Virus record (IMG/VR): IMGVR_UViG_3300042486_000415
Coordinates: 1 to 23,356 of that record
Reading direction: 5' to 3' (one strand)
Origin: a virus
DNA length: 23,356 nucleotides
Below are positions 1-20,848 of this stretch, piece after piece (position 1 is the stretch's first letter; each line of letters begins with the position of its first letter). Under the pieces are notes generated by a model. That model was not told the origin of the DNA. It ran no database searches and was given only the letters and a program-made list of their open reading frames with translations. The translations under genes were made by a program, and so were the position numbers.

Positions 1-1586
1 TAATTAACGAGCGTGAATGGCGTTTATGCCGTGGACCAGAAAACGCTACCCTAGAAGAAGAACTGGATGCGTTCATTTACTTCTGTGAACATTACTGGCA
101 TATTAAACACCCCGAACAGGGGCGTATATTGTTTGAAATGCGTGAAGCACAAGTTGAAACTATGCGTACATGGATGACAGCACGCTACAGTGTAGTCCTA
201 AAGGCACGCCAGATTGGTTTCTCCACTCTGGCTGCAGCATATTCTTTTTGGCTGGTATATTTTCGTCCTGACCGATTTGTAGTTATGCTATCTAGGACAG
301 AACGAGAATCAGTTAAGTTGCTTGCCAAGTCTAAGTATGGTTATCGTTTCCTTCCTGTGTGGATGAAGGAGCGTGGACCTAAGCAAACTACCGACCATCA
401 GCAAAAGATGATGTTTGATAACGAGTCTGCCATTGAGTCGCTACCTAGTGGTTCGGACCCTGCTCGTGGTGAATCGGTATATTTGGTTATTGTTGACGAA
501 TGGGGTTTCTTGCCTAACCCTGAGGAAGCATGGGCTTCTATTGAGCCGATTGCCGATGTCGGCGGGCGAGTCATTGGTTTGTCCACCGCCAACGGTTCAG
601 GTAACTTCTTTCATCAACTGTGGGTTGGTTCCCAAACAGGAACCAACCAGTTTGAAGGTATTTTTTTTCCTTGGTCTGCTGGTGACCGTGACGAAGACTG
701 GTATACAGTTAAAGCACGAAACATGTCTTCTTGGCAGTTGCATCAAGAATACCCACGGTCACCTGAAGAAGCCTTTGTAAAGTCGGGTAACCCCGTGTTT
801 GACATTGACCTGTTGGATTCGTTTGAAATGATTGAACCTGAAGAGGGATATCTTCATGTTTACTCGGACAAAAACTATGAGTTCCGAAACGCAGAAGATG
901 GTCCTTTTTCAATTTGGGACTTTCCCCGTCCAGAGTGTGTTTATGTGATTGGGGCGGATGTGGCGGAAGGTTTGGCTCATGGCGACTATAGTTCTGCCCA
1001 CATTGTCAATGCCTCCACAGGTGAAGTTGTAGCCCACTGGCACGGTCACATTGAACCTGACTTGTTTGGTGAGTTACTTGCCGAACTGGGTTGGTGGTAT
1101 AACCAAGCCTTAGTCGGCGTTGAGTCTAATAACCACGGATTAACCACTCTAAAGGCTGCACAGCGTGCTGGATACAAAAACCTATATAGACAGCGCAAAC
1201 TGACGGTTCGTTCGCCACAGGCGACTGAAACGCTCGGTTGGCGCACAACGGCTTCCTCAAAGCCGTTGGCTATTGACGAACTTGTAGCGGCTATCCGTAA
1301 CGAAGATATTATTATTTACTGTTATAAAACCATCGGTGAGTTAAGAACCTTTGTTCGCAAGGACAACGGGAAGATGGCTGGGTCGCCTCATGACGACAGA
1401 ACTATGAGTTTGGCTATTACTAACCAAATGTTGAAGTATGTTTGGCTTCCAGAGTACCGTGGGGATGTAAATGTACCCAAAAATAGTCTTTTGTGGTGGG
1501 AACAGCACCTTTTTAGTGAGGTTGGAGAGGAAAGAATCCCTATTGGGGCTCATAATGTTCGTTCCACAACCAAAAATCCACTTTAA
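1..1586 (+). CDS. Terminase large subunit (5' partial)
   Basis: This is the ATPase-nuclease that pumps phage DNA into the prohead and cuts it. The frame is open from the window edge (first whole codon at nt 3), so the true start lies upstream; 527 residues are visible. The ATPase half has a Walker A-like loop KARQIGFST (nt 201-227), a Walker B strand LVIVDEW with the acidic pair (nt 483-503) and the coupling motif STANG (nt about 582-596). The RNase H-like nuclease half shows its three acidic sites: IGADVAEG (around nt 950-970), VGVESNNHG (around 1116-1140) and SPHDDRTMSLA (around 1383-1415). All expected catalytic residues are present, so it should be active. A small terminase subunit would be expected upstream, outside the window. 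The coding region contains two perfect inverted repeats, listed separately. Confidence 0.95.
   Translation, partial: INEREWRLCRGPENATLEEELDAFIYFCEHYWHIKHPEQGRILFEMREAQVETMRTWMTARYSVVLKARQIGFSTLAAAYSFWLVYFRPDRFVVMLSRTERESVKLLAKSKYGYRFLPVWMKERGPKQTTDHQQKMMFDNESAIESLPSGSDPARGESVYLVIVDEWGFLPNPEEAWASIEPIADVGGRVIGLSTANGSGNFFHQLWVGSQTGTNQFEGIFFPWSAGDRDEDWYTVKARNMSSWQLHQEYPRSPEEAFVKSGNPVFDIDLLDSFEMIEPEEGYLHVYSDKNYEFRNAEDGPFSIWDFPRPECVYVIGADVAEGLAHGDYSSAHIVNASTGEVVAHWHGHIEPDLFGELLAELGWWYNQALVGVESNNHGLTTLKAAQRAGYKNLYRQRKLTVRSPQATETLGWRTTASSKPLAIDELVAAIRNEDIIIYCYKTIGELRTFVRKDNGKMAGSPHDDRTMSLAITNQMLKYVWLPEYRGDVNVPKNSLLWWEQHLFSEVGEERIPIGAHNVRSTTKNPL
623..648 (+). other. Perfect inverted repeat in the terminase gene
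   Basis: GGTTGGTTCC (623-632) and GGAACCAACC (639-648) are exact reverse complements, a 10-bp stem with a 6-nt CAAACA loop. No T-tract follows, so it is not a terminator. Function unknown. Confidence 0.8.
1246..1268 (+). other. Perfect inverted repeat in the terminase gene
   Basis: CAACGGCTT (1246-1254) and AAGCCGTTG (1260-1268) form a 9-bp perfect stem with a 5-nt CCTCA loop inside the nuclease-domain coding region. No T-tract follows. Confidence 0.75.
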
Positions 1587-2034: not shown

Positions 2035-2221
2035 GATTACAGAACAGCAAAAGTCTGCTTTTGCGTCTTATGTTCGTAGTGCTAGTGCAACAGTGTTGAC
2101 TGTTGTTATTGCTGGTGAAACTTCACCACGAATGATTTGGTCTGCGTTTGTTGCAGCGTTCCTTCCTCCGATTGTCCGTTGGCTTAACCCCAAGGACGCT
2201 TCATTTGGACGGACAAAGTAA
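2021..2221 (+). CDS. Holin-like membrane protein
   Basis: This 66-residue protein has two hydrophobic stretches (residues about 22-31 and 38-53) separated by a short polar GETSPR turn. A charged end follows, with the pattern PPIVRWLNPKDASFGR. From memory, this arrangement and the 'RxxNPxDxxFGR' ending occur in small putative holins of environmental phages and actinophages; I could not search for homologues. A holin would permeabilise the inner membrane and let the lysin at 20845-21303 reach the cell wall. I chose the ATG at 2021 over an in-frame ATG at 1973, because the earlier one lies deep inside the preceding gene and adds residues with no membrane logic. The stop overlaps the next start (TAATG at 2219). 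Confidence 0.6.
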   Translation: MEKVKITEQQKSAFASYVRSASATVLTVVIAGETSPRMIWSAFVAAFLPPIVRWLNPKDASFGRTK

Positions 2222-2523
2222 TGCCTGCCAAGAGGAAACCAGCAATTACTGGTATGCATTCTCAGGGCATTAGCGATATTGCACGAGGAGCAGCGAAGGC
2301 TGCTGCTAAAATTGCTATGAGTAAATCAGCAAAGGCAGCAAAAGAAAAAGCGGCACAAAAGTCTGCTGCTCAAAAGGCTGCTAGTGCTGCTGCTAAAAAA
2401 GCAAAAGATAATGCTTATGAAAAAATGGTAGAAAAAGCATTAAAGAAAAGCCCAACTGGTTCCATCGGTGGTTCTGAACTTATGGATATTGGCAGGCGTT
2501 CAAATTCTTATTACAGGAAGTAA
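2221..2523 (+). CDS. Lys/Ala-rich basic protein, PAITGMHSQGI N-terminus
   Basis: This 100-residue protein is dominated by Ala and Lys (18 Lys and about 5 Arg by my count against about 7 acidic residues). Its middle is a long KAAAK-type helix like the tails of histone H1 and bacterial H1-like proteins. Such sequences bind nucleic acid non-specifically, so a role in condensing or neutralising packaged DNA is plausible but unproven. The N-terminus PAITGMHSQGI recurs in the protein encoded at 3188-3778, with only synonymous base changes. A 20-bp stretch (2290-2309) is repeated exactly at 2562-2581 in the next gene. The start overlaps the upstream stop, and only two bases separate its stop from the next ATG. 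Confidence 0.8.
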   Translation: MPAKRKPAITGMHSQGISDIARGAAKAAAKIAMSKSAKAAKEKAAQKSAAQKAASAAAKKAKDNAYEKMVEKALKKSPTGSIGGSELMDIGRRSNSYYRK

Positions 2524-2525
2524 TT

Positions 2526-3191
2526 ATGGCTGCTAGAAAACCTGAAGGTATTGTTGGCGATGCAGCGAAGGCTGCTGCTAAGAAGGCTGCTGAAGCAGCA
2601 AAGAAGGCAGCAGTAAAGAAGGCTGCTGCCGAAGCAAAAGCAAAGGCTGCTAAAAAGGCTGTAACAAAGACAACAAAGAAAGCCGCTTCCAAGGCTAATC
2701 CTAGGAACTCTTATGCTTTGGGTCGTACTGTTGTGCATGCTTCCCCAACTCGTGGTTTAAAAAAGATTACACCCCATAAAGGTTCTGCTGCTTTACCCGA
2801 TGAAACTGTAGCGTTTTTTTGGGACCCAAAAGATTTTGGAAAAAGAGGAAGTATTCTTTTGTCTTCACAAGAATACATGCGTGGAACTGGTTCTGCGTAT
2901 GTAGGAAAAGTTCCACGGTCTTCATATAAAAAGACACAGCATGGTATTGGTGCTTCTTATAAGCCAATTAAGGTAAAGAAGGAAATTGTTGGCGATAATC
3001 AGAATTTTTCTAAAAATTATAAAGAACTTGATAAGGCACTTTTAAGGGCTGGTGTTATTAAGAAGCCAACCAAGGCTGGTGCAAAATCTAAAGCCAAAAA
3101 GGTTGTTTCTAAGGCTGAAACTGTTGCTAGGAAAAATAAAACAATTTCTAAAAAACTTAGCAAATATCAAAATAGGAATTCAATAGTATGA
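2526..3191 (+). CDS. H1-like basic protein with extra C-terminal domain
   Basis: This 221-residue protein opens with about 60 residues of Ala/Lys repeats (AAKKAAEAAKKAAVKK type), as in histone H1-like tails. A less biased segment follows (residues about 62-165) containing WDPKDFGKRGSIL and Gly/Ser-rich stretches, and then a second Lys-rich end (residues about 178-221). The start RKPEGI...AAKAAAKK looks like a shortened version of the upstream protein's RKPAITGMHSQGI...AAKAAAK. Shared DNA (20 bp identical) points to duplication or recombination between the two genes. The ATG follows the previous stop by two bases, and its own stop overlaps the next start as ATGA at 3188-3191. The middle domain is not one I recognise. 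Confidence 0.8.
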   Translation: MAARKPEGIVGDAAKAAAKKAAEAAKKAAVKKAAAEAKAKAAKKAVTKTTKKAASKANPRNSYALGRTVVHASPTRGLKKITPHKGSAALPDETVAFFWDPKDFGKRGSILLSSQEYMRGTGSAYVGKVPRSSYKKTQHGIGASYKPIKVKKEIVGDNQNFSKNYKELDKALLRAGVIKKPTKAGAKSKAKKVVSKAETVARKNKTISKKLSKYQNRNSIV

Positions 3192-3778
3192 TGCCAGCAG
3201 GTAGACCAGCAATTACAGGGATGCATTCTCAAGGAATCATTGACGACATTTTTGAAGGCGCAGGGAAAAAGGTCGTTCACGCAGTTCGGCGCACAGTTCA
3301 GGACGCTGTACATGCAGACAAAAGACTTGCTGGACGAACTGCTGCTGCAGCAAAATCAAAAACTAGGTCAGAAATTTCTAATGCCAAAAAGATTGGTGGA
3401 GTTAAAAAAGGATTTGCTAAAGAGGTCGGTATTAAAACTGGTCCTGATGGTAAACCTTTAAAGGGACCTGATGGTAAAACCATTCGTGTTAAGCCCAAAA
3501 TCAGAACAGCCAATCCTACCAAGAAGGCAACTAAAGCCGCTAATAAAAGCAACTCGGCAAAAGCAAACATTGACGACATTAATAGTCGTGTACCTAAGAA
3601 GACTGCTGCACGGGCTGAAGCGTATTCTTCTATTCGTGATAACAAGATGTTTAGGGCTAGGGCTTTCTTTCCTGATGATGCTTCGTTTCAGCGTGCATTG
3701 AAGGAAGAGGCTGCAGATATTCGTAGAGCCACCAAAGGTATTAAGGGTGGACCAAAAGTGACAAAGAAGAAAAAGTAA
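3188..3778 (+). CDS. Basic protein, second PAITGMHSQGI copy
   Basis: This 196-residue Lys/Arg-rich protein starts with PAITGMHSQGI, the same peptide that opens the protein at 2221, followed by an IDDI sequence. Lys/Ala-rich helices run through residues 20-60. A short GPDGKPLKGPDGKTI repeat sits near residues 86-100, and residues about 125-185 are less biased. The start may be the ATG at 3188 (4-nt overlap) or the adjacent ATG at 3191 (1-nt overlap). The stop overlaps the portal start (TAATG at 3776-3780). Being directly before the portal and coupled to it suggests a virion or assembly role such as an internal or DNA-binding protein, but no family is recognised. Confidence 0.8.
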   Translation: MMPAGRPAITGMHSQGIIDDIFEGAGKKVVHAVRRTVQDAVHADKRLAGRTAAAAKSKTRSEISNAKKIGGVKKGFAKEVGIKTGPDGKPLKGPDGKTIRVKPKIRTANPTKKATKAANKSNSAKANIDDINSRVPKKTAARAEAYSSIRDNKMFRARAFFPDDASFQRALKEEAADIRRATKGIKGGPKVTKKKK

Positions 3779-5562
3779 TGGCTAGAAAATCTAAATCAGA
3801 AAAACTTGCTAATTACCGCAAGCATCTTGAAGCCTCCAAAAAGTGGCGCAAAGATGAAGGCTATGATGCAACATGGCGCAGACTAATTGACCTATATAAA
3901 GGCAAGCATTACGATGCCTACAGTGATGAAGACCGCATGTTGATTAACATTGCGTTCTCCACCATTAATGTTATTGGTCCTGCTGTTGCTGTTAACTACC
4001 CTAAGATTACAGTTAATGCTGTTAAGCCCGACAACGCTGCTCAGGCAGTCGTTGCCGAGGCGGTTGTTAACTACTGGTGGAAGTATCGTGATATTCGTTC
4101 TGAGTTTCGCCGTGCTGTTAAAGATTTGTTGATTACTGGTCAGGGTTGGGTTAAGACTGGTTATCGTTTTGTTGAAGAAGAAGCCATTGGCGATGATGGC
4201 GATGACAACGACCCTATGATGGGTGGAGAGGCAACTACCAATAATGTTATCCTTCAAGATTCACCGTTTGCGGAGCGTGTGTCACCGTTTGACATTTTTG
4301 TTGATTGCGATGCTACCAGTATGCATGACATTAAGTGGATTGCTCAGCGTATCCGCCGTCCTATTAGCGAAGTAAAATCAGACAAGCGTTATAATAAAAC
4401 GGCTCGTGAAAATGTAACCATTGCTGCTATTGGTCGTTATGGTGATGACCCAAGTCTTCGCAAGGTTTACGACAAGAATTATGGTTATGCTGAACTTTGG
4501 GAATATTATGACATTCAAAACAATATTATGTGTGTATTCTCGGAAGGTGGCGAGTCATTCTTGGTGGACCCAATGCGTATGCCATATGCGTTTGGTCATC
4601 CATTTGTTATGCTACGCAACTATGATGTCCCTGATTGTTTTTACCCTATGGGTGACCTTGAACAGATTGAACCACTTCAAAAAGAACTAAACGAGACACG
4701 CTCACAGATGATGAATCATCGTAAGCGTTTTGCCCGTAAGTATCTGTACAAGGAATCAGCGTTTGACCAGTTTGGTCGCAGTGCCCTAGAGTCAGACCAA
4801 GACAATGTTATGGTTCCTGTTGTTTCTGATGAAGCACTAGGTAATGTTATTATGCCTATGCCTGCTGTTATTTCTCCTCCAGAGTTTTATAACCAGTCAC
4901 AGTTGATTACTGACGACATTAACCGTATTACTGGTTTGCCTGAGTTTATGTCGGGTGGTTTGCCTGAGATTCGCCGTACCGCTACAGAAATTAGTGCGGT
5001 GCAGGATGCTGCTAACGCACGAACATCAGATAAGTTGTCTATTGTTGAGATTGCAATTTCTGAAGTGGCACGCCGTATGTTAATGCTTGCTCAGCAATAT
5101 ATGACTGGTGAACATGTTGCTCGCATTTCTGCTAAAGATGGCGAACCTATGTGGGTTACTTATGACCGTGACTATCTTGAGGGCGACTTTGACTTTGAGG
5201 TTGTAGGTGGTTCTACACAGCCACATAACGAGGCTCAACGCCGTCAGATGGCTTTGCAAATGGTTGACGCTATGGCTCCGTTTGCTGGCGCAGGAATTAT
5301 CAACATGCAGGAACTGGCTGGATATGTACTCTCTCAGGGATTCAACATTAAGAACCCAGAGAAGTTCTTGTCCGTGCCTGCTCCTGCTCCTATGGGTCCT
5401 GAGGGTGGCGCACTACCTGAAGGTGGTATGCCACCACAAGGTATGCCTCCACAGGGTATGGTTCCGCCTGAGCAGATGCCACCTGAGGGTGGTATGCCAC
5501 CAGAAGGTGGTTTACCTCCTGAGATTATGGCTCTGTTGCAGCAGGGACAACCACCAGTTTAG
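3778..5562 (+). CDS. Portal protein
   Basis: The portal is the twelve-subunit ring at one capsid vertex through which DNA enters and leaves and on which the tail is built. The 594-residue length, the position between terminase and scaffold/capsid genes, and the sequence fit a podovirus portal. It has an N-terminal wing region rich in WR, DLYKGKHYDAYSDED and LLITGQGWVKTGY. A helical segment MMNHRKRFARKYLY follows, and then a clip/stem-like region INRITGLPEFMSGGLPE with RRTATEIS. The last 55 or so residues are a Pro/Gly/Met-rich low-complexity tail of PPEGGM/PPQGM units, which is unusual and probably disordered. Its start overlaps the preceding basic-protein stop by one base. The repeated 24-nt element lies just after its stop. 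Confidence 0.93.
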   Translation: MARKSKSEKLANYRKHLEASKKWRKDEGYDATWRRLIDLYKGKHYDAYSDEDRMLINIAFSTINVIGPAVAVNYPKITVNAVKPDNAAQAVVAEAVVNYWWKYRDIRSEFRRAVKDLLITGQGWVKTGYRFVEEEAIGDDGDDNDPMMGGEATTNNVILQDSPFAERVSPFDIFVDCDATSMHDIKWIAQRIRRPISEVKSDKRYNKTARENVTIAAIGRYGDDPSLRKVYDKNYGYAELWEYYDIQNNIMCVFSEGGESFLVDPMRMPYAFGHPFVMLRNYDVPDCFYPMGDLEQIEPLQKELNETRSQMMNHRKRFARKYLYKESAFDQFGRSALESDQDNVMVPVVSDEALGNVIMPMPAVISPPEFYNQSQLITDDINRITGLPEFMSGGLPEIRRTATEISAVQDAANARTSDKLSIVEIAISEVARRMLMLAQQYMTGEHVARISAKDGEPMWVTYDRDYLEGDFDFEVVGGSTQPHNEAQRRQMALQMVDAMAPFAGAGIINMQELAGYVLSQGFNIKNPEKFLSVPAPAPMGPEGGALPEGGMPPQGMPPQGMVPPEQMPPEGGMPPEGGLPPEIMALLQQGQPPV

Positions 5563-5617: not shown

Positions 5618-6433
5618 ATGAGCGAAGATTTCGCACCCGTATCTGATGCGGAACCCATTTCAACAGATGTTGAATTTGATGGTGGGTCACCCGATTCCAG
5701 TGAGGTAATTGAAACCACAGAATCACCAACCTTGGACATTAGTGAGTATTCGGATTACCGAATTCCCGTTAAACTTGATGGTGAGGAACTGCAAGTTCCA
5801 CTTTCTGAGGCTATTGCTGGTTATCAGCGTCAAGCAGATTATACTCGCAAGACGCAAGAATTAGCAGAGCAACGGCAATCTTTAGAGTTTGCCTCCACTC
5901 TGCAGTCTGCTCTTGAGAATGACCCTGCTGGAACTCTGGACCTATTGAGTCGTCATTATGGCATTTCTCGTGCACAAGCACAAGGGATGGTTGATGATTT
6001 GGATTCTCAGTTTGAGGATTTGGACCCAGTGGAACGGAAGATGCGTGAACTTGACCAGCGTATTGCACAGTTTGAGGAGATTCAATCGCAGCAAGCGATT
6101 GAAACGGAAATTAACCGTTTGCAGTCTAAGTATGAGGATTTCAACAAGACAGAGGTTGTCAATGCCGCTATTAAGGCAGGGACAACCGATTTGGAAGCAA
6201 TGTACAAGCAGATTGCGTTTGACCGTTTTATGAAGCAAAAAGAATTAGAAACTGCCGCAAATCAGGCTAAGCAACAGAGAGAGTCTCAGGTTGTTCAGCA
6301 GAAGCGTGAAGCAGGTGTGGTGTCGGGTGGCTCTTCGGCTACTGCTACTACAACTACTGATTCTATTGCTCCTATTTCGTCAATCTCTGATGCTTGGGCT
6401 GCTGCCAAGAGACAATACAACGCCAGTTTTTAA
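5618..6433 (+). CDS. Capsid assembly scaffold protein
   Basis: Scaffold proteins line the inside of the growing prohead and are removed before or during packaging. This 271-residue acidic protein lies between portal and capsid genes, as expected. The N-terminal 40 residues are acidic and disordered. Residues about 45-90 hold IPVKLDGEELQVPLSEAI followed by YQRQADYTRKTQELAE, a pattern shared by many podovirus scaffolds. The rest is predicted coiled coil (Glu/Gln/Leu-rich to about residue 225), then a Ser/Thr linker and a short C-terminal helix that in this family contacts the capsid protein. A strong AGGAG stands at 5604-5608, 9 nt before the ATG. The coding region contains a 9-bp perfect inverted repeat at 6081-6103. 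Confidence 0.88.
   Translation: MSEDFAPVSDAEPISTDVEFDGGSPDSSEVIETTESPTLDISEYSDYRIPVKLDGEELQVPLSEAIAGYQRQADYTRKTQELAEQRQSLEFASTLQSALENDPAGTLDLLSRHYGISRAQAQGMVDDLDSQFEDLDPVERKMRELDQRIAQFEEIQSQQAIETEINRLQSKYEDFNKTEVVNAAIKAGTTDLEAMYKQIAFDRFMKQKELETAANQAKQQRESQVVQQKREAGVVSGGSSATATTTTDSIAPISSISDAWAAAKRQYNASF
6081..6103 (+). other. Perfect inverted repeat in the scaffold gene
   Basis: TTCAATCGC (6081-6089) and GCGATTGAA (6095-6103) pair over 9 bp around the loop AGCAA. No T-tract follows, so termination is unlikely. Confidence 0.75.
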
Positions 6434-6450
6434 TTAATTAGGAGAATATA

Positions 6451-7416
6451 ATGGCTGCAGGAAATAGTAATTTTGACCAAATTCTGACAACGACACTTGC
6501 GAACTATCGTGACCAGTTGACAGACAATGTGTTCACGGCTCGTCCGTTAACATACCACCTTATGGATAAGGGTCGCATTCGTATGCTTAACGGCGGTACG
6601 AAGATTGTTGAGCCTTTGATTTATGGTGAAAACTCAACAGTAAAGCCTTACAGTGGTTATGACACCATTGACCTTTCGCCACAGGCTGGCATTTCGGCTG
6701 CTGAATTTGATTGGAAGCAGTACGCTGCTTCTATCGCAATCAGTGGTATTGAAGAAGCAAAGAACAACGGCGAACAGGAAGTTATTAACTTGCTGGAAGC
6801 CAAGATTATGCAGGCTGAAGAGTCAATGCGTGAAGGTTTCAACCGTATGTTCTTCGGAAACGGTACAGACACCCTTGGTGCTGGTGGAACAAACTCAGGC
6901 AAGTCTTGGAACGGTCTTGGTAACTTGGTTGAATCAGGTAACACCGTTGGTGGTATTGATTCGTCAGACGCAGACAACACTTGGTGGCGTTCATATGAGG
7001 AAAACACCGCAGGTGCTTTGACTCTTGCACAGATGGCTACGGCTTACAACACCGTGTCGGTTGGTAATGACCACCCTGATATGGTTCTTACTACTCAAAC
7101 ATTGTTTGAAAAGTATGAGTCGTTGTTGCAACCACAGTTGCGTTACACCGACACCCGTACAGCAGATGCTGGTTTCCAGAACCTGTTGTTCAAGTCGGCT
7201 CCAGTAACCTACGATGTTCATGCTCCTTCGGGAACAATGTTCTTCATTAACTCTAAGTATCTCACGCTTGTGGGTCACTCAGAGAAGTGGTTCCAGAACA
7301 CTTCGTTTGTTCGTCCCGAAAATATGGACGCTCGTTACGCTCTTATCATGTGCTACGGTAACCTTACAATCCGTAACCGTGAAAAGCAGGGTAAGTTGAC
7401 TGCGAAGACTGCTTAA
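6451..7416 (+). CDS. Major capsid protein (HK97-fold type)
   Basis: This 321-residue protein builds the capsid shell. It follows the scaffold gene and has the best ribosome binding site of the region (AGGAG at 6440-6444, 6 nt before the ATG), as expected for the most abundant protein. Its sequence fits capsid proteins of the HK97 fold. The N-terminus ILTTTLANYRDQLTDNVF leads to an E-loop-like stretch with KIVEPLIYGENSTVKPYSGYD and a long helix EAKIMQAEESMREGFNRMFFGNG. The C-terminal A-domain strands include MFFINSKYLTLVGH and MDARYALIMCYGNLTIRNR. No N-terminal prohead protease site is evident, which agrees with a separate scaffold. A strong terminator follows at 7443, probably limiting read-through into the next genes. 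Confidence 0.92.
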   Translation: MAAGNSNFDQILTTTLANYRDQLTDNVFTARPLTYHLMDKGRIRMLNGGTKIVEPLIYGENSTVKPYSGYDTIDLSPQAGISAAEFDWKQYAASIAISGIEEAKNNGEQEVINLLEAKIMQAEESMREGFNRMFFGNGTDTLGAGGTNSGKSWNGLGNLVESGNTVGGIDSSDADNTWWRSYEENTAGALTLAQMATAYNTVSVGNDHPDMVLTTQTLFEKYESLLQPQLRYTDTRTADAGFQNLLFKSAPVTYDVHAPSGTMFFINSKYLTLVGHSEKWFQNTSFVRPENMDARYALIMCYGNLTIRNREKQGKLTAKTA

Positions 7417-7442
7417 TTAGTAGTTAGTAAATATACTGTATT

Positions 7443-7480
7443 GATGGGGGAGTGGATTTTATCCCTCCCCCATCTTTCTA
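7443..7480 (+). terminator. Intrinsic terminator after the capsid gene
   Basis: GATGGGGGAG (7443-7452) pairs perfectly with CTCCCCCATC (7465-7474). An inner GGAT/ATCC pairing and a TTT loop extend it to 14 bp with one bulged T. TTTCTATTT follows. Its place, 26 nt after the capsid stop and ahead of a lower-priority gene block, fits a Rho-independent terminator or a stabilising 3' hairpin that sets capsid mRNA level. Confidence 0.88.
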
Positions 7481-7503
7481 TTTAAACAAGAGAGAGTTTC
7501 ATT

Positions 7504-8028
7504 ATGTATGGTCCAAATGACCCAAAACCTTTTCCACCTAAGCCAAGACGCAAAGGTCCACGCAAAGATGGTCCAACACCCATTGTTCCACGCAGACCAA
7601 ACCCACCAAAACCAATTGGACCTGATGGGCGTAAGCGCAAAGATGATGGTAGACTGTTGCCACGGGAACTTCTTCAATTTCCAACACCTTTTGGTCCATC
7701 AAAGCCGAAGCGTCCGAAAAAGCCAACGACAACACCGCCGAGCAAAAAAGGTCCTAGTGGTAGTCGCAAGCCTGTAGGTCCATCGGTTGGTCCAAAGCCT
7801 ATGCCTAAGGGTCCTAAGGGTCCTAAGGGTCCTAAGGGTCCTAGTGGTTCTCGCAAGCCAATGCCAGCACCTCCAAGTGGCAAGGGTCGTATTCCTATGC
7901 CAAAGGGACCTGGTAGCAGTCGTAAGCCAGGTATTAAAACTTTACCTGCTTATCCAAGTGATAAAAAGCCAAACATTAAGACATTGCCTTATAAGCCAAA
8001 AAAGCAAAGCCGTAAAAAGGTTTATTAA
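7504..8028 (+). CDS. Pro/Lys/Gly-rich protein with collagen-like repeats
   Basis: This 174-residue protein is almost entirely Pro, Lys, Gly, Arg and Ser, very basic and without predictable globular structure. Near residues 101-114 it has four consecutive GPK-type triplets encoded by exact 9-bp repeats. The peptide GPSGSRKP occurs twice, with a related GPGSSRKP and two IKTLP motifs further on. Collagen-like triplets occur in phage tail fibres and capsid decorations. Here the extreme positive charge and the neighbouring basic proteins equally suggest an internal, DNA-associated protein. It is the first gene after the capsid terminator, with only a weak purine stretch (AGAGAGAG) before the ATG. 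The stop overlaps the next ATG (TAATG at 8026). Confidence 0.75.
   Translation: MYGPNDPKPFPPKPRRKGPRKDGPTPIVPRRPNPPKPIGPDGRKRKDDGRLLPRELLQFPTPFGPSKPKRPKKPTTTPPSKKGPSGSRKPVGPSVGPKPMPKGPKGPKGPKGPSGSRKPMPAPPSGKGRIPMPKGPGSSRKPGIKTLPAYPSDKKPNIKTLPYKPKKQSRKKVY
7804..7848 (+). repeat. 9-bp tandem repeat (collagen-like codons)
   Basis: Four exact copies of CCTAAGGGT run from 7804 to 7839, and a degenerate fifth copy, CCTAGTGGT, ends at 7848. They encode repeating Pro-Lys-Gly. The exactness at third positions suggests recent slippage expansion, so copy number may vary between related phages. Confidence 0.9.
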
Positions 8029-8618
8029 TGCCAACTGTTGGAAACAAAAAATATCCTTACACTAAAAAGGGTATTGCAGATGCCAAAAAAGCAGCCAAGA
8101 AAGTGGGTGGGGGTAAAACCCCACCCAAATCTGCTGCAAAAAAGGCTTCCGCTAAACCATTGACAGCATATCAAAAGGCTGTTAAAGGTCCTGCTAAATC
8201 TGCTGGAAAAGGCAAACTTCAACCTTACGATGCTAAATGGAAGGCTAGTGTTGCTAAAAAATCTAAGCGTACAGGCGTAGACAAGGTTGCTGAGGGTATT
8301 TTAAAGTATTCTCCTCTTGCTGGTATTGCTTATGGTTTTGAAGCAGCAACTGGTAAAAGCGTTAGCGGTCCCATGAATAAGCCTGCTAAGAAGGTAAACC
8401 GTTTGGGTGCTGCTGCCAATGCTGCTACTTATGTAGTGGGTGGTGGGGCTCTTGGAAAAGCAGCAAAGAAAACAGTTAAAACTCTTAGGGCTACTAAGGG
8501 TGCTGGAGAAATGGCAACCAAAAAAAGCAATCAAGGTCAACAGGTTGGAAAAGCAGAATTTGATAATTATGTAAATATACTTGTTAACAAACAACTTTCA
8601 AAAAAGAAAAAGAAATAA
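8028..8618 (+). CDS. Basic protein with VGNKKYPYTKKG N-terminus
   Basis: This 196-residue protein is Lys/Ala-rich at both ends and ends in a run of lysines. The N-terminus VGNKKYPYTKKGIADAKKAAKK resembles, from memory, the start of many small basic proteins in environmental phages ('VGxKKFPYTxxG...'), whose function is unknown. Residues about 85-150 are less biased and partly hydrophobic (ILKYSPLAGIAYGFEAATG, and a Gly/Ala/Val-rich stretch NAATYVVGGGALGKAA). That pattern could be an amphipathic or membrane-active segment. It overlaps the collagen-like gene by one base and is followed after two bases by the next ATG. A strong GC-rich hairpin lies about 75 nt inside the gene. Confidence 0.75.
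   Translation: MPTVGNKKYPYTKKGIADAKKAAKKVGGGKTPPKSAAKKASAKPLTAYQKAVKGPAKSAGKGKLQPYDAKWKASVAKKSKRTGVDKVAEGILKYSPLAGIAYGFEAATGKSVSGPMNKPAKKVNRLGAAANAATYVVGGGALGKAAKKTVKTLRATKGAGEMATKKSNQGQQVGKAEFDNYVNILVNKQLSKKKKK
8104..8127 (+). other. GC-rich perfect hairpin near a gene start
   Basis: TGGGTGGGG (8104-8112) and CCCCACCCA (8119-8127) pair over 9 bp with a 6-nt GTAAAA loop, inside the gene starting at 8028. No T-tract follows. In mRNA it would be a stable obstacle soon after initiation. Confidence 0.8.
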
Positions 8619-8620: not shown

Positions 8621-9214
8621 ATGGCTAAGTTACCTATTGATGACATTATGAAAAAAATTGCTAAGCAGATGGCTAACAAGGCTAATCAAAAAGCACGCTA
8701 TGAACTAATGAAGAAAACTAAGGACATTGCTACTTCTGGTGCTAGCAAAGTTACGGCAAAGCCAAAAGTAAAACCCAAGGCAAAGCCGAAAGCAAAGCCG
8801 AAGGCAAAACCCAAGACAAGTTCACGGGGTACTGGCACTATTGATGGTCGTCCTACAGGCAGAATTGCCCGAACAACCCCTGCTCGTCCACGCCGTGATT
8901 ACTACCCCAAGGGCAAGACTGTTGCTCAAACCGATTCTGAGAAGCGTGCTGCTGAGCGTTTGGCTAACCGTATGTTGCGTCAATCAGGTTTCAACACTCC
9001 TAAGTCTAAGCCTAGTGGAAATGCTAAGCCTGTTGATGTTCGTGGTTCTATTATTCAACCACCGTCTAAGGCTACTATGCGCCCCACTAGCCCACGAGGT
9101 TCTTCTGCGTTTGAGGCTGATAAGTCTGTTGCAGAGATTCGTGCTGACCGTGCCAAGTTTGGCAGAGGTCAGAAACCACCTAAGCGTAAACCAAAACCTA
9201 AGCCTAAAAAGTAA
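8621..9214 (+). CDS. Basic protein with Lys-Pro repeats
   Basis: This 197-residue protein is strongly basic. It starts LPIDDIMKKIAKQMANKANQ, then has a (Ala/Val)-Lys-Pro-Lys repeat at residues about 45-65, an Arg/Gly/Thr-rich middle (RGTGTIDGRPTGRIAR) and a Lys/Pro tail ending KPPKRKPKPKPKK. Alternating Lys-Pro is typical of extended, DNA-binding H1-like tails. The sequence is the third member of the basic block downstream of the capsid gene, mirroring the three basic genes before the portal. No enzyme motif is visible. The ATG follows the previous stop by two bases; a six-T run and the third copy of the 24-nt element follow its own stop. Confidence 0.75.
   Translation: MAKLPIDDIMKKIAKQMANKANQKARYELMKKTKDIATSGASKVTAKPKVKPKAKPKAKPKAKPKTSSRGTGTIDGRPTGRIARTTPARPRRDYYPKGKTVAQTDSEKRAAERLANRMLRQSGFNTPKSKPSGNAKPVDVRGSIIQPPSKATMRPTSPRGSSAFEADKSVAEIRADRAKFGRGQKPPKRKPKPKPKK
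8759..8815 (+). repeat. 12-nt period repeat encoding Lys-Pro-Lys-Ala
   Basis: The nineteen codons from 8759 to 8815 encode repeating KPK(A/V) units with a 12-nt period. The units differ mainly at third codon positions, so this is an older or selected repeat rather than a fresh expansion. Confidence 0.8.
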
Positions 9215-14528: not shown

Positions 14529-15359
14529 ATGGCTAATTTAAGCGATTCGCAAGTTTTTGAAGTTTTAAACTTGACTAATGGCGACACTACGGCATTAACA
14601 AATGCGGATGTTCCTACTGGTCAGATTATTCGTGTCCTTGTAGCAAACCCTGAACTTGTTGAAAAAATCAAAAAAAATGCTGCAAAAAAAGTAACTCGTT
14701 ATGGCAGGTTCTATAGGGATTATAATTATGACCCTACCTATGCCCAGAATGCTGTTGAGTCTAAGTGGGCTTTGGCTCCACCAAAGGTTGCTAAGTTTGG
14801 TATGGATTTTTGGAAGAAAATAAAACAGCGTGGAATTGACACAACAACCTTTAACGCCACAAAGCAATATTTAACTGACAACAAAGATGACATGATTGCT
14901 CAGTATGGAATTACTGAAGGTGAATTTGATGACGCTATAGCAACTTTTGATACGGACTATACAGAATTTCGTGATTCGGAACAGAGGCGTGTACGCATTC
15001 AGTATAAAGCGTATAAGGCTGGTCAGAAGGAACGAGGAATTACTCCTGAAGATAACAATGTTCCTGGCACTGCTGGTTTTCGGCGTGGTGGACCTAATTA
15101 TAGAACTCAAACACGAGATGATTATTTGACTGAATCAACTGGAATTGTTGGTGTAGGTTCTATTCCTAAAAGTGCTGACGATTATGCAACACAACAGGTT
15201 GCGGCATTTAAAAAGTTTGCTCAAGGAAAAGGTTTAGATGTTAGCCGCATTGATTCTTTGTCCCCGCAACTAACTGGGATTGTAAAGAAAAAAGTTGGAA
15301 AAAATTATCAAAATTATGCAATTCAAGATTTGCTTAAGCGTCAAGTTACTGGACAATAA
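14529..15359 (+). CDS. Hypothetical internal virion-type protein
   Basis: This 276-residue charged, mainly helical protein has no domain that I recognise. The N-terminus (NLSDSQVFEVLNLTNGDT) is followed by a basic segment (VEKIKKNAAKKVTRYGRFYRDY). Helical stretches come next (FGMDFWKKIKQRGIDTTTF; EGEFDDAIATFDTDYTEFRD), then a Gly/Arg-rich section and a C-terminal helix. It lies between the Thr/Pro-linker protein and the 1829-residue protein and overlaps the latter by one base (TAATG at 15357). In podoviruses this position holds the middle member of the ejected internal proteins. The leader carries copy D of the 24-nt element and only an AGGGG ribosome binding site. Confidence 0.6.
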   Translation: MANLSDSQVFEVLNLTNGDTTALTNADVPTGQIIRVLVANPELVEKIKKNAAKKVTRYGRFYRDYNYDPTYAQNAVESKWALAPPKVAKFGMDFWKKIKQRGIDTTTFNATKQYLTDNKDDMIAQYGITEGEFDDAIATFDTDYTEFRDSEQRRVRIQYKAYKAGQKERGITPEDNNVPGTAGFRRGGPNYRTQTRDDYLTESTGIVGVGSIPKSADDYATQQVAAFKKFAQGKGLDVSRIDSLSPQLTGIVKKKVGKNYQNYAIQDLLKRQVTGQ

Positions 15360-18300
15360 TGGCTGTTTCAAAATCTCCTTTTAGCAAGAAGAACAATACA
15401 GATACAACAACCAGCACGACCATTGGTCCTGCTGGTATTAACCCGTTTGAAGAGTCAAATACGCCTTCCTTAATGGATGAAATTAATAACCTAACCCTTG
15501 CGGGTTATGTTAATGCTGGTGGTGGCAGTGACAAACTCAAGTCCACTGTACGCCAAGAGAAGCAAGCATTGGACAAGTCTTATCGTGCTGCTTTGGCTAG
15601 AATTTCTCGTAGCACTACGATGAGTGAAAAAGAAAAGAATCGTTACCGTAAAAGGTTGGAAGACATTTATACCAAGGGAATGGTTGAAAGTCCTAAGCCT
15701 GGTATTCTTAGTCAAATTGGTTCGGAGTTTAAAAGCCTTCTTAGCAACCCTATTGCTTATGTTGGTGGTGACATTTTAAGTACTTCTGCAACGGTTGGGC
15801 GTGGTATTCAATCTGGTGTTTTGGAAGGTATTCAGGCTGCTAAAAAAGGTCAGTTCCTTACGAGTGGTTTGTCCACGCCTACTGGTACGGTTATGGGTGC
15901 TGCTCGCAATATGCCTGCACCAAATACTGTTTATAAACAAGACGAAACAACTGGTAAAACAGTTCGTCAATACACTGGACCTGAACCTTCTTTTAAAGAT
16001 TTTGTTTCTCAAGCAAAAGATAAAGATTTCCGTTTAGCACCGCAAACGGGAAATGCGTTTATTGACTGGACTGTTGACTTTGGTGCAGACCTTATTACAG
16101 ACCCAATTAACCGTATTGGTATTGGAAATGTTCGTTATTTTGGTTTTGCTGGTCGTACCGAACTTGCAGTCAAGTTCGGTACGGAAGAGATGCTCAGTAA
16201 GTATCCTCAACTTGTAGGAAAAATAGATGACATTGGAACCTATGGTGCTGCCGCAATTCCCAAGGATGTGCGTGTTGCTGAAGGCATAGAATATGGTCTT
16301 CGTTTTAGAAGGGGTTTAAACCCTTTTAGTGAAAAAGCAGAAAACATCGTCATGATTCCCAAGACCGATATTTTTCATACTGCTTTGTCTGGCAAGAGTG
16401 GTGTTTTAACACAGACTCGTTTGCTTGCTGGTGAAGCAGCACGCAAGATTGGTACAAAGACTGGCAAAACAGGAACATACACTGCTGCTAGTCGTCTTGG
16501 TCTTAAAACTCTTGGTTATGGTACAGGTCAAGGTCTTGCGGACCAACCAGTTATTGAAGAGATTGCTAAGTACACTTCTGCTAAATGGGCTAAAGGTTTT
16601 AAGGCTGAAGCGTACCGTAAAAATGTTGCTGGAATTAAAGATTTGCTTAAAGAGATTCGTGAGGCTGGTGTTGGCAAAGAGGTTTATAAACTTGTTGAAT
16701 CTCCAGAAGCGTTCGCTAGGTCTACTGATACACAGTTGAAAGAGTTTGCTACACGCTATAAAGTGTGGCAGGATGAAGTTCGTCAGGGTGTAAACAATAT
16801 TCGCATTAAATTCAATGATGAATTTGGTGCGAATATGAAAGAGATTGGTTTTGTGGATGATTATCTTCACCACAAAATGACAGACAAGGCTTTCCGTTTT
16901 GCTTATGGACCTAAGGGTCAAAGTGCAAAATATGCTGGTTACTTTAAAGATGCTGATTTGTCATCTGTTGAACTAGGACAAAACACTGGTGCTGCTATGC
17001 ATCGTACCATTGGGTCTCCTGCGGTTATGCCTGATGGAAGCATTACTTATTCTAAGTTTATGGGTGAAGATGTTGTCCTTGACGACAATTTCCCTACGGT
17101 CATTGATAAAGTTAATGAAATTTTTCGCCGTAAAACTGGCGAGTCGTTTGACTTTTTTGAAACAGATATTTTTGCTATTGCAGATTCTTATGCTTATAGC
17201 ATGGCTGCAGCCCGTGGGCGTGAAGCCTATGTTCGCCGTCTGTTGGATTATGGTGGCGATGTTGCACAGATTATAAACAAGAAGGTTGTTCCAGATGCTG
17301 CTTTGTTGGCTACTTTAACTACTGCACATACTGGTTTGATGGCTGTTCGTCAACGCTTAGTAACGAAGGTTATGAAGACTCGTAATTTGGCTAATGAAAA
17401 AGCCGAGGCAGTTTTGAAAACTGCTCGGAAAATTCTTGATGAAAAGGATTCTAAAGCCTTTTTGTTGGACACAGAAATTGCTGCGACAACTAAGAAGTTA
17501 AACGAGTTGGAAGTTAAACTTAACAATGCTTTGATTAATGCTTCTGTTAAGGGTCAGGCTGAGCGTGGTGCGTTTGTTGAGATTCATTCTGCTTTGATTG
17601 AACAGGTTCAGGTTATGCGTGCCGCTATTGAGGCTGGTCGTCTTGATGAGTTGGCTGCTTATAATATGTTGAAGGATATCTTTTTGAAGATGCGTCCTGA
17701 TGCTAAGCGTATTCCTAATACTGCTAGCAAACTTTATGATGCTATTACTCGTCAGATGGGTATTAATGACCCTACTGATTTGCGTGAGGCTACTAAGCGT
17801 TTGAAGGCTCTTCAGGCACAGTTGAAAGATAATCCTCCTGTTGACGCTGACGAGTTAAATGATTTGTTGGATATTGAAGAAGCGTTAAGCGAGCAGATTG
17901 CTGGTTTCCAAATTTTGTCTGATGTTAAGATGACTGCTGATTATGCTGAGGATGGTTTGCTTTATACAAGTTTTGATAACCTTAGCCCTAGAGAGTTTGA
18001 CCCTAATGCCGAAATGCCGTTGCGTGTTGCAGACACGCAACCAGTTACTGGTGGTTATGGTCCTGACATGAGTGTTGATGAAATTGCTATGTTGCGTCAG
18101 GCGCAGTTATCAGACCCAAACTCTGTTGCTGTCCATGCTATTCCAACATCGGAAATGGCTGACTTGCGTAATCCTGAGTGGTGGACAATGTTTTGGCATC
18201 CACAAGATGGTTCTGTTGATGCTGTAATGTATGCTGTGAGCCGTGCTGGTGCAGACTTTGAAGACGGCATCAGGATGGCTCTTGATGATTTAATGAATAA

Positions 18301-20848
18301 TGGATTCATTGAATCAGGATTTAGAGAAGCGTTCCCTGAAGCGGCTGACCTTGTTGAATATATTGTTCAACTTGGAAACATGACTTTTCCTGAAGGGGTT
18401 GTTCCCGAAGATGTTCTTGTTGATGTCTTTAGGGCTTTGAACGAAAAGTTTTATGCGCTGTCTTTTTCTTTAGACCCGTTTAATGCTGAGTTGGCTGCCA
18501 AGCAAATGTATAATGACTTTTTGATGTCTTCTGTTAATGAGGTTGTGAACAAGCGTTTTGTTTTGGGTGGCGATGACCTTCCTGATTTCCGCAACCTTCT
18601 TGTTCCTAGCCAAGTAGTTCATGGTTTTGATAATCCAATGGCTGAGGGTGTGTATTCAGTTATTATGCCTGAACCATACAACTATGCTGACGAGTGGGGC
18701 ATGAAGACGCTTACGGATGACATGATTGATGGTCAAGGTTCTCCTGTTATGTTTACAGCAAACGAAGAAAACGAATTGATGCAGGCAGTTATAAACTCTG
18801 ATTATCATACTGCTGCATTTGAGGCTGCGGGTAGGCAAAGTAAACTTGAAGAAACGGTTCAAGAATTAACTAGTAGGCAGGCTACTAACGAGGCACTTAG
18901 GGCTGAAACTATGTCTGTTTCTGGCAAGATTGGCGGTATGAAGTCTGCTGGTTCTCGCCGTGTTAAAGCGGCTGAGAAGGCTTGGAAACAATATGAAGAA
19001 TCAGGTTTGATTGATATTGTTGATGGTAGCGGTAAAAAAGTCAAGGTTACTGTTGATGAAGCACAACGGATTCTTAACAAGTCTGAGGTTAAACTTCATA
19101 ATAAGTTGATGGCTATGGAGGATAAACTTCTTCGTTCTACCGATAGAACTTTGGCTCCTATTCAGCGTGACATTGCGTATCATGAACAGCGTTTGCAAAC
19201 TTTGGTTGACCAAAAGCGTGTCATTGAACGATGGAACGCAAGCACTGGAGATGCTTTGCGTTCCGAAGTTGAAGCATTAACGATTGCTATTCAGACTAAT
19301 CCTCCTGCTGGGGATGCAGGGACATACTCTCGTATTTGGACTAACCGTGTAACTGACCGTATCAATAACATTGCTAGACTTGAGGGCACTGGTGTTAAGG
19401 ATGCTTGGGAGCGTGTTGCTGTTCAGTTGTCTGCTGACGAGGCTAAGTTGGCTTTATATGATGGTGTGTTGATTCCTAATTCTCTTAGGGATATTGATGC
19501 TGCTAAGTTTGCTGGGTTGGCTGATGATATTCTTGATGGCTGGACTGCTATTGAATCTTTGGGTATTCAGGTTCCTAAGGAAATGTCTGACATTTTAAAG
19601 CCGAACATTGAGCAGTTGCGTAAGGCGGCTACGAGCAATACTTGGTTCCAAGCGTATAAGCGTTATAACCAAATCTTTAAGATTTATGCGACTATGACTC
19701 CTGGTTTCGTTGTCCGTAACGCATATTCTGCTGCTTTTATGAACAAGATTGCTGGTGTTGATAACAAGGCTATTATGGATGGCACTAAGGCTATGATTGC
19801 TTATCATAAGCATGGTCCTAGTAAGTGGCTGGATGTTTTGGGTATTACCGATGTTGCTGACCGTGAGGTTTATGAGACTGCTATGCGCTCTGTTATGGCT
19901 ACGGGGCGTGGTATTCAGTCTGACTTTATTTCTCCTGCTCTTGCTGGTACTTGGGGTGAGCGTATTGTGAACAACAAGGCTACTCAACTGTTGGGCAGGG
20001 CGAACGAGTTTGTTGAAAACTCGGTTCGCTTCCCTATGGCTTTGGACAGTATGCGAAAAGGTTATGGATATGATGAGGCTGTATATCGTATTTCACGCTA
20101 CCACTTTGATTATACTGACCTTTCTGCAACAGATGAAATGATGAAGAACTTCATTCCTTTCTGGGTGTGGACAACGAAAAACTTGCCTTTGCAGTTGGTT
20201 GAACAGATGATTCACCCACAGTATTATCAGGCTTATAATCGTATTCAAGAGTCAAACCCTGTTTCGTCTGAGATTCTTTTGCCTGCTTGGTTGTCCGAGT
20301 CTAGACCTATGGGTTTCTTGGGTGGCAATAATATTTTCAGTCCTGATTTGCCTCAACTTAGATTAAGGTCAACAGCCGAAGGCTTGGTTGACCCTCTTCG
20401 TCTTCTTGGTCAGGCTAACCCGTTGGTTAAACTTCCTATTGAACTTTCGTTTGATAAGCAGTCTGCTACTGGTCAACCGTTTACTGGTAAGTATGACAAG
20501 GCTAAGGGTCTTGACAAGGCTGTTGCTTGGCTCGCAGACAATCTAGGCATTGACGCAGTGGGTCGTATGGGTGCTGAAGGCGAACTGGAAATTAACCCTA
20601 AGTTTAACTACGCCCTAGGAAACCTGTTGCCAACCATTGGTACTGCACAGCGTATATCGGGTGGTGCTATTGGTGGTAAGCCAACCTACGAGGAACGCCA
20701 ACTTAGCAGTTTGGCTACATTCTTTGGTCTTCCAATGAGAAGCATCGGGGAAGGTCAACAGCGTGGAGAGGCAATTAGCCGTCAGTTTAGATTTGCTGAG
20801 GAATTAAAAGGCTTAGCCCAAAAAGGAAAGATAGAGAAAAACAAATGA
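15359..20848 (+). CDS. Giant internal virion / DNA-ejection type protein
   Basis: At 1829 residues this is the largest gene. Its size and place after the fibre genes match the largest ejected core protein of podoviruses (T7 gp16-like role) or phage 'polyvalent' proteins. No tape-measure context exists. The N-terminus (1-110) is polar, followed by SNPIAYVGGDILSTSATVGRG and a conserved-looking NAFIDWTVDFGADLITDPINRIG. Coiled-coil-like regions occur at residues about 677-780 and 1161-1291. Around 1446-1640 is a region with MTPGFVVRNAYSAAF, a motif with FPMALDSMRKGYGYDEAVYRI and NFIPFWVWTTKNLPLQ. From memory, such 'FxPFWxWTxxN' regions recur in large environmental phage virion proteins. I see no lytic transglycosylase or protease signature. 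The gene contains at least six strong inverted repeats, including the longest perfect one of the window. Confidence 0.65.
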   Translation: MAVSKSPFSKKNNTDTTTSTTIGPAGINPFEESNTPSLMDEINNLTLAGYVNAGGGSDKLKSTVRQEKQALDKSYRAALARISRSTTMSEKEKNRYRKRLEDIYTKGMVESPKPGILSQIGSEFKSLLSNPIAYVGGDILSTSATVGRGIQSGVLEGIQAAKKGQFLTSGLSTPTGTVMGAARNMPAPNTVYKQDETTGKTVRQYTGPEPSFKDFVSQAKDKDFRLAPQTGNAFIDWTVDFGADLITDPINRIGIGNVRYFGFAGRTELAVKFGTEEMLSKYPQLVGKIDDIGTYGAAAIPKDVRVAEGIEYGLRFRRGLNPFSEKAENIVMIPKTDIFHTALSGKSGVLTQTRLLAGEAARKIGTKTGKTGTYTAASRLGLKTLGYGTGQGLADQPVIEEIAKYTSAKWAKGFKAEAYRKNVAGIKDLLKEIREAGVGKEVYKLVESPEAFARSTDTQLKEFATRYKVWQDEVRQGVNNIRIKFNDEFGANMKEIGFVDDYLHHKMTDKAFRFAYGPKGQSAKYAGYFKDADLSSVELGQNTGAAMHRTIGSPAVMPDGSITYSKFMGEDVVLDDNFPTVIDKVNEIFRRKTGESFDFFETDIFAIADSYAYSMAAARGREAYVRRLLDYGGDVAQIINKKVVPDAALLATLTTAHTGLMAVRQRLVTKVMKTRNLANEKAEAVLKTARKILDEKDSKAFLLDTEIAATTKKLNELEVKLNNALINASVKGQAERGAFVEIHSALIEQVQVMRAAIEAGRLDELAAYNMLKDIFLKMRPDAKRIPNTASKLYDAITRQMGINDPTDLREATKRLKALQAQLKDNPPVDADELNDLLDIEEALSEQIAGFQILSDVKMTADYAEDGLLYTSFDNLSPREFDPNAEMPLRVADTQPVTGGYGPDMSVDEIAMLRQAQLSDPNSVAVHAIPTSEMADLRNPEWWTMFWHPQDGSVDAVMYAVSRAGADFEDGIRMALDDLMNNGFIESGFREAFPEAADLVEYIVQLGNMTFPEGVVPEDVLVDVFRALNEKFYALSFSLDPFNAELAAKQMYNDFLMSSVNEVVNKRFVLGGDDLPDFRNLLVPSQVVHGFDNPMAEGVYSVIMPEPYNYADEWGMKTLTDDMIDGQGSPVMFTANEENELMQAVINSDYHTAAFEAAGRQSKLEETVQELTSRQATNEALRAETMSVSGKIGGMKSAGSRRVKAAEKAWKQYEESGLIDIVDGSGKKVKVTVDEAQRILNKSEVKLHNKLMAMEDKLLRSTDRTLAPIQRDIAYHEQRLQTLVDQKRVIERWNASTGDALRSEVEALTIAIQTNPPAGDAGTYSRIWTNRVTDRINNIARLEGTGVKDAWERVAVQLSADEAKLALYDGVLIPNSLRDIDAAKFAGLADDILDGWTAIESLGIQVPKEMSDILKPNIEQLRKAATSNTWFQAYKRYNQIFKIYATMTPGFVVRNAYSAAFMNKIAGVDNKAIMDGTKAMIAYHKHGPSKWLDVLGITDVADREVYETAMRSVMATGRGIQSDFISPALAGTWGERIVNNKATQLLGRANEFVENSVRFPMALDSMRKGYGYDEAVYRISRYHFDYTDLSATDEMMKNFIPFWVWTTKNLPLQLVEQMIHPQYYQAYNRIQESNPVSSEILLPAWLSESRPMGFLGGNNIFSPDLPQLRLRSTAEGLVDPLRLLGQANPLVKLPIELSFDKQSATGQPFTGKYDKAKGLDKAVAWLADNLGIDAVGRMGAEGELEINPKFNYALGNLLPTIGTAQRISGGAIGGKPTYEERQLSSLATFFGLPMRSIGEGQQRGEAISRQFRFAEELKGLAQKGKIEKNK
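16154..16183 (+). other. 13-bp perfect inverted repeat, 4-nt loop
   Basis: CGTACCGAACTTG (16154-16166) and CAAGTTCGGTACG (16171-16183) are exact reverse complements with loop CAGT. A T-G wobble could extend it. It is inside the giant protein's coding region; no T-tract follows on either strand. A simple chance estimate for such a structure in this window is far below one. Confidence 0.9.
18019..18041 (+). other. Perfect inverted repeat in the giant gene
   Basis: GTTGCGTGT (18019-18027) and ACACGCAAC (18033-18041) pair over 9 bp around TGCAG. Confidence 0.75.
18286..18316 (+). other. 13-bp hairpin with one G-U in the giant gene
   Basis: TGATTTAATGAAT (18286-18298) pairs with ATTCATTGAATCA (18304-18316) around AATGG. 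Twelve pairs are Watson-Crick and one is U-G in RNA. The stem is AT-rich, unlike the others. Confidence 0.8.
19232..19265 (+). other. Hairpin in the giant gene
   Basis: GGAACGCAA (19233-19241) pairs with TTGCGTTCC (19256-19264). With one bulged T, GC/GC adds two pairs above it, and a T-G wobble extends the base. The loop is 9 nt. Confidence 0.7.
19998..20031 (+). other. 14-bp hairpin with one bulge in the giant gene
   Basis: GCGAAC plus GAGTTT (20000-20011) pair with AAACTC (20017-20022) and GTTCGC (20024-20029), with one bulged G and the loop GTTGA. Two G-U pairs extend the base. Confidence 0.8.

What the first reader, a model, noticed from the sequence alone, without database searches (positions are those of the whole stretch)
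2221..3240. A conserved 11-residue N-terminal peptide on two adjacent basic proteins
PAITGMHSQGI opens the proteins encoded at 2221 and 3188. Over these eleven codons the DNA differs at five or so third positions and at no replacement site, so the peptide itself is under selection after an old duplication. The protein between them has a shortened version (RKP..GI). It may be a docking or packaging tag, for example to scaffold, portal or the capsid interior, on DNA-binding cargo.
Basis: partly seen in the sequence, partly recalled or inferred. Interest (0 to 1): 0.6.

Follow-up and report, generated by a model that had tools for sequence, protein, structure and literature searches.

The report
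Shared N-terminal tag on phage proteins
A group of uncultured short-tailed phages puts the same short peptide at the front of several otherwise unrelated, strongly positively charged proteins, most likely as an address label that loads them into the virus head, much as phages T4 and P1 do with different labels.

Summary
PAITGMHSQGI opens the proteins at 2221 and 3188/3191 with no replacement difference, and synonymous codons as different as independent draws (5 differences, 5.1 expected). Related phage contigs carry the same module at the N-termini of up to 5 basic proteins each (strict motif): M-A-x-[KR]n-P-[AI-linker]-[QEK]-G-[IVF]-x-D-D-[IVA]. The linker is TG[ML]HSQ, GGLHSQ, [DT]GLARPQ/E, E[RK]PE or ELNNKPK, or is absent, as in window gene 2526. 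Of 35 matches in a position-blind scan of IMG/VR, 31 lie 3-5 residues after an ATG, all in this clade. Bodies fall into about 27 sequence clusters, while the linker tracks the genome (permutation 1/5000). Tagged genes sit in the terminase-portal-scaffold-capsid cassette. The body of gene 2526 has a predicted ADP-ribosyltransferase-like fold (Foldseek best hit Arr, probability 0.98, E 0.006, low TM-score). Best explanation: a modular head-loading signal for DNA-binding or injected cargo, functionally like the T4 and P1 DarB capsid-targeting sequences; no protease gene is evident, and no annotated phage carries it. Packaging itself is inferred, not shown, and the binding partner is unresolved. 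New variant of a known kind.

The parts
2221..2523 (+). basic protein (100 aa, pI 10.4) with long-form tag
   Evidence: homologs in L007, L009, L085
2239..2271 (+). tag peptide PAITGMHSQGI, copy 1
2526..3191 (+). basic protein (221 aa, pI 10.5) with short-form tag, Lys/Ala-rich helix and a folded domain
2538..2564 (+). short-form tag KPEGIVGDA (homologs KPQGIIDDA, KPEGVLDDI)
2697..3065 (+). predicted ADP-ribosyltransferase-like domain
   Evidence: AlphaFold pLDDT 82.9, pTM 0.78; Foldseek Arr probability 0.98, E 0.0056; low TM-score
3191..3778 (+). basic protein (195 aa, pI 10.8) with long-form tag; listed ORF starts at 3188, homologs favour ATG 3191
3206..3238 (+). tag peptide PAITGMHSQGI, copy 2
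8621..8647 (+). MAKLPIDDI, probable looser variant of the module at the start of the basic protein 8621-9214
   Evidence: inference
129..1586 (+). context: terminase large subunit
   Evidence: PHROGs
3778..5562 (+). context: portal protein
   Evidence: PHROGs, Pfam
5618..6433 (+). context: head scaffolding protein
   Evidence: PHROGs
6451..7416 (+). context: major head protein
   Evidence: PHROGs

Best explanation
The peptide is a modular N-terminal address tag shared by a set of co-expressed, strongly basic proteins in the head-assembly cassette of a clade of uncultured podovirus-like phages. Anatomy: a short basic start (M-A-x-K-K-P), an optional 4-8 residue linker whose sequence is characteristic of each phage (here AITGMHSQ), and a core G-[IVF]-x-D-D-[IVA] that runs into a basic, probably helical stretch. 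Most likely the tag binds an assembling head component (scaffold, portal or inner capsid face; which one is unknown) and so loads the proteins into the procapsid. There their basic bodies can neutralise or organise packaged DNA, or they are ejected into the host. One cargo (gene 2526) carries a predicted ADP-ribosyltransferase-like domain; T4 Alt, a head-packaged ADP-ribosyltransferase, is the precedent. Shown: sequence conservation, N-terminal position, modular exchange of bodies, per-genome matching of linkers, cassette location. Inferred: binding to a head component, packaging, ejection, enzymatic activity.
For: Peptide identical with saturated synonymous sites in the window; over same-genome tag pairs 168 of 207 residues identical, with 84 of 166 degenerate codons differing against 90.6 expected for independent draws. 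A position-blind scan of IMG/VR gave 35 matches, 31 of them in frame 3-5 residues after an ATG and all in this clade. 57 strictly tagged proteins in 28 loci; with looser variants, 83 proteins whose bodies fall in 27 clusters. Linker similarity is 0.62 for different bodies in one genome, 0.55 for one body family across genomes and 0.33 otherwise; 1 of 5000 permutations reaches it. Long and short tags interchange on one body family. Genes lie between terL and portal, after the major capsid gene, or upstream of terL, with abutting or overlapping start and stop codons; in 38-39 kb contigs that carry the strict tag it is found 2-3 times. All strictly tagged proteins have pI above 10. Gene 2526 domain: AlphaFold pLDDT 82.9 and pTM 0.78 (best of five models), Foldseek best hits Arr, then TreTu. 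[quoted passage not shown] the first 30 residues of P1 DarB send a reporter to the capsid (PMC9024508); phage ARTs encoded near head genes are thought to be head-packaged (PMC9503650).
Against: I found no virion proteomics for any member, and packaging is argued from anatomy and analogy. Linker divergence correlates with terL, portal, scaffold and capsid divergence alike (Mantel r 0.69, 0.58, 0.51, 0.47), so it may simply follow phylogeny and does not name a partner. No similarity between the tag and the scaffold profile. More distant relatives with 81-87% identical capsid protein lack the tag, so the capsid does not by itself require it. The ART assignment rests on one good model of five, with low TM-scores (about 0.45) and no sequence-profile support.
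Confidence: 0.6

Rival explanations
1. The tag docks the basic proteins to a partner outside the head, for example a host protein or a replication, transcription or terminase component, and the proteins act in the infected cell without being packaged.
For: Linker sequence follows the genome, as a shared partner of any kind would predict; linker divergence correlates somewhat more with terL than with capsid.
Against: All tagged genes found lie in or next to the head cassette and are so presumably late; known relatives of this arrangement (T4, P1) are head cargo.
Confidence: 0.2
2. The tag is no address label but the conserved first helix of an expanding family of DNA-condensing proteins: an oligomerisation or DNA-binding element, whose bodies have drifted beyond recognition after duplication.
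For: The core runs into a basic, Ala/Lys-rich stretch shared in character by most members; several genomes have tandem tagged genes (L085, L050).
Against: One body family exchanges long and short tags, and a linker of one genome sits on different bodies, which simple descent does not predict; an acidic DD core is unexpected for a DNA contact.
Confidence: 0.15
3. The N-terminal similarity is kept at the nucleic-acid level (translation signal, RNA structure) or by recent gene conversion.
For: N-terminal coding position would suit a translation signal.
Against: Synonymous codons are as different as independent draws in the window (5 of 10, 5.1 expected) and over all pairs (84 of 166, 90.6 expected).
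Confidence: 0.02

Closest known systems
T4 capsid-targeting sequence (CTS) of the internal proteins IPI-III and Alt
   Same: About 10 N-terminal residues conserved on otherwise diverse small proteins that are loaded into the scaffolding core; one cargo (Alt) is an ADP-ribosyltransferase (PMC3012670, PMC9958956, PMC9503650).
   Different: In T4 the tag is removed by the gp21 protease; no such protease was recognised in this window. No sequence comparison with the T4 CTS was run. Here packaging is not shown, the tag has a genome-specific linker, and the phages look podovirus-like.
P1 DarB N-terminal capsid-targeting signal
   Same: First 30 residues suffice to send a reporter to the capsid; residues 6-10 matter (PMC9024508), the position of the tag here.
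   Different: P1 is a myovirus with a predicted prohead protease and no identified scaffold protein; here a scaffold gene is present and the tag recurs on many proteins.
Head-packaged phage ADP-ribosyltransferases (Alt/VIP2, MuF fusions)
   Same: ART-like domain encoded next to head genes (PMC9503650).
   Different: Gene 2526 is Arr-like by predicted fold only, not a MuF fusion, and carries the short-form tag.
Small basic phage proteins with the N-terminal FPYT module (phrog_33179)
   Same: Another short N-terminal module on different basic bodies in the same phages, e.g. window 8028.
   Different: Unrelated sequence (MPxVxxKxFPYTxxG); function unknown.

Membership tests
T4-type capsid-targeting sequence | Short conserved N-terminal sequence on several otherwise dissimilar proteins of one phage | tested here: met
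T4-type capsid-targeting sequence | Genes encoded with the head genes | tested here: met
T4-type capsid-targeting sequence | Removed by a prohead protease | tested here: inconclusive
   No protease among the window products scanned with PHROGs and Pfam, but the record may be incomplete
T4-type capsid-targeting sequence | Sufficient to load a foreign protein into the head | not testable with these tools
   needs reporter fusion
T4-type capsid-targeting sequence | Sequence homology to the T4 or P1 signals | not tested
   The T4 and P1 peptides were not compared directly; a 36-residue long-form tag found no match in 50,697 GenBank phage records
ADP-ribosyltransferase superfamily (gene 2526 domain) | ART fold | tested here: inconclusive
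   Foldseek best hits Arr (probability 0.98, E 0.0056) but TM about 0.45 and only one good model of five
ADP-ribosyltransferase superfamily (gene 2526 domain) | Sequence-profile match to an ART family | tested here: not met
   Pfam and PDB sequence searches found none
ADP-ribosyltransferase superfamily (gene 2526 domain) | Catalytic triad and activity | not tested
   His71, Tyr117 and Glu153 are invariant in seven homologs; their role is inference

The most novel reading that the evidence does not exclude
A protease-independent, genome-specific cargo-loading code in scaffold-dependent short-tailed phages: each phage carries its own linker variant on several exchangeable cargo proteins, including an ADP-ribosyltransferase-like effector, so cargo genes acquired from relatives must be re-addressed to the local partner before they are packaged.
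Probability: 0.35. Interest if true: 0.75.

Novelty: new variant of a known kind. Interest (0 to 1): 0.6.

Why it matters
The N-terminal head-loading signals that I found shown by experiment are those of T4 and P1, both myoviruses with a known or predicted prohead protease. A signal of this kind recurring on about 27 body clusters in an uncultured phage clade would suggest that such address tags arose separately in short-tailed phages. It would also give a simple rule for spotting head-packaged and possibly injected proteins in metagenomes, where most of them are now 'hypothetical'. A 20-residue loading tag could also be a portable tool for putting proteins into phage particles.

Tried and rejected
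Tag as mimic of the scaffold's conserved C-terminus (PI..I.DAW.AAKRQ): hhalign of the tag profile against the scaffold profile gave no meaningful match (probability 0.2%). Identifying the partner by matching tag divergence to core-protein divergence: all four core proteins correlate, so it does not discriminate. RNA- or DNA-level conservation or recent gene conversion: rejected because synonymous codons are randomised. Family assignment of the tagged proteins by Pfam, PHROGs or PADLOC: nothing convincing. Finding the tag or two of the cargo proteins in GenBank phages: none; in 84,980 bacterial and archaeal genomes: no exact match to the long-form pattern and no relative of gene 2526. PDB sequence search for gene 2526: nothing significant. 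Literature search for a described tag of this kind in podoviruses: none recognised in the open-licence library.

Full report
What was checked. The window is one whole IMG/VR virus record of 23,356 bases. It reads terminase large subunit (129-1586), three small genes, three basic proteins (2221, 2526, 3188), portal (3778-5562), scaffold (5618-6433), major capsid protein (6451-7416), then more small basic proteins and tail genes. PAITGMHSQGI is present exactly as described: eleven identical residues, five third-position differences. With this phage's codon usage, independent codon choice would give 5.1 differences at those ten degenerate codons, and in 200 shuffles of the main proteins no shared peptide exceeded eight residues. 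So the DNA is saturated while the peptide is held.

The tag is a family feature. The capsid protein brought in 80 related contigs. Many of their head cassettes contain the same N-terminal module on several basic proteins each. Aligned, the module reads M-A-x-[KR]n-P, then either nothing or A-[IV] plus a linker, then [QEKH]-G-[IVF]-[VIL]-D-D-[IVA] and a basic stretch. Strictly defined, it occurs on 57 proteins in 28 of 78 representative loci, one to five per locus; many other loci are truncated or belong to more distant subclades. Looser variants on neighbouring genes (KPAIGLGPIKDDL, KPKLPIGDDL, KPQDLRDI, and MAKLPIDDI in window gene 8621) are probably the same module, with less certainty.

Position and specificity. 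A DNA pattern for KPAI followed within 1-11 residues by GI[IV]DD, with no constraint on position, was run over 2.9 million viral contigs. Of 35 matches, 31 are in frame and start 3-5 residues after an ATG, all in this clade; the other four look like chance. In the 38-39 kb contigs that carry the strict tag it appears two or three times. A long-form tag was not found in GenBank phages, and the long-form pattern has no exact match in 84,980 bacterial and archaeal genomes.

Modularity. With the tag removed, 83 tagged proteins fall into 27 sequence clusters at BLAST E 1e-4; low-complexity basic sequence makes this number approximate. One body family can carry the long or the short form: the family of window gene 3188 has AITGMHSQ here, AITGLHSQ in L007 and L085 and no linker in L010 and L011; the family of window gene 2526 has no linker except in L085 7531, which has AVQLHNQ. 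Conversely, bodies of different clusters in one genome carry near-identical linkers (window TGMHSQ twice, L017 ELGNKPK and ELNNKPK, L050 ERPE and ERPQ, L114 DGLARPQ twice). Mean linker similarity is 0.62 for different bodies in one genome and 0.33 for different bodies in different genomes; 1 of 5000 permutations reaches the observed value. Over same-genome pairs 84 of 166 degenerate codons differ, against 90.6 for independent draws, with 168 of 207 residues identical. This excludes recent gene conversion and RNA-level constraint and fits protein-level selection for a common partner. Genomes are related to one another, so the permutation value is not an exact probability.

Cargo. All strictly tagged proteins are very basic (pI 10.2-11.4, median about 26% Lys+Arg), and those scanned have no convincing family assignment. 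Gene 2526 has a folded domain (residues 58-180) after the tag and a Lys/Ala-rich helix. Predicted alone with seven sequences in the alignment it reached pLDDT 82.9 and pTM 0.78 in the best of five models, the other four being poor. The best PDB fold matches are rifampin ADP-ribosyltransferases (Arr 2hw2, probability 0.98, E 0.0056; 9iaf; Arr-2 9iba) and further down the Rhs toxin TreTu, which to my knowledge is also an ADP-ribosyltransferase; the full-length model gave Arr as its top hits too. TM-scores are only about 0.45. The invariant His71 (VVHGSP in homologs), Tyr117 and Glu153 could be an H-Y-E type triad; that is inference.

Mechanism. Tight start-stop overlaps within the run from 2221 to portal suggest synthesis together with the head proteins. 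The closest working precedents are T4, where the internal proteins are a diverse set sharing only a capsid-targeting sequence (PMC3012670), with Alt and the internal proteins in the scaffolding core and cut by gp21 (PMC9958956), and P1, where the first 30 residues of DarB carry a reporter into the head (PMC9024508). ARTs encoded next to head genes are thought to be head-packaged (PMC9503650). The tag here fits that logic: same end of the protein, similar size, shared by dissimilar cargo, encoded in the head cassette. It differs in having no recognisable prohead protease among the window products tested and in its genome-specific linker. The partner is unknown: tag divergence follows terL, portal, scaffold and capsid alike, and it does not resemble the scaffold.

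Verdict. The packaging interpretation is the best explanation at about 0.6, not shown. It is a new variant of a known kind of signal, if packaging is right.

Noticed in passing
window 8028-8618; L010 7019, L087 (oriented) 1511, L109 (oriented) 2588, L114 (oriented) 4581: A second short N-terminal module, MP[TKR]V[GN][NG]K[KTE][FY]PYTxxG, on basic proteins whose bodies look different, in the same phages. Window copy matches phrog_33179 at E 0.0006; no GenBank phage match by a 28-residue query.
   Followed up: partly
L068 2402, L070 1930, L080 4526 and 4954, L082 1138: Relatives that lack the KPAI/DD tag start their basic post-capsid proteins with a third shared motif, MPxxYxILDNG or MPYDYAVLDNG. 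Possibly another clade's tag.
   Followed up: partly
L007 4354-5151, L010 3367-4128, L011 6363-7124, L006 1598-2368: Some close relatives have an extra gene of about 253-265 aa (…VPWGY…) between portal and scaffold that the window lacks. Not identified.
   Followed up: no
L085 oriented 5969-8608: Five tagged genes in tandem after terL, two of them with the ART-like domain family in long- and short-tag form.
   Followed up: partly
L016 3404-3805: A short-form tagged protein whose C-terminus reads RRKPAIEINR, like the start of a long-form tag.
   Followed up: no
L115 oriented about 1949; L117 4326: Tagged genes upstream of terL rather than after it.
   Followed up: no
window 15359-20848: Protein of 1829 aa with only a weak PHROGs match (tail fiber/host specificity, E 2e-6) over about 65 residues.
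   Followed up: no
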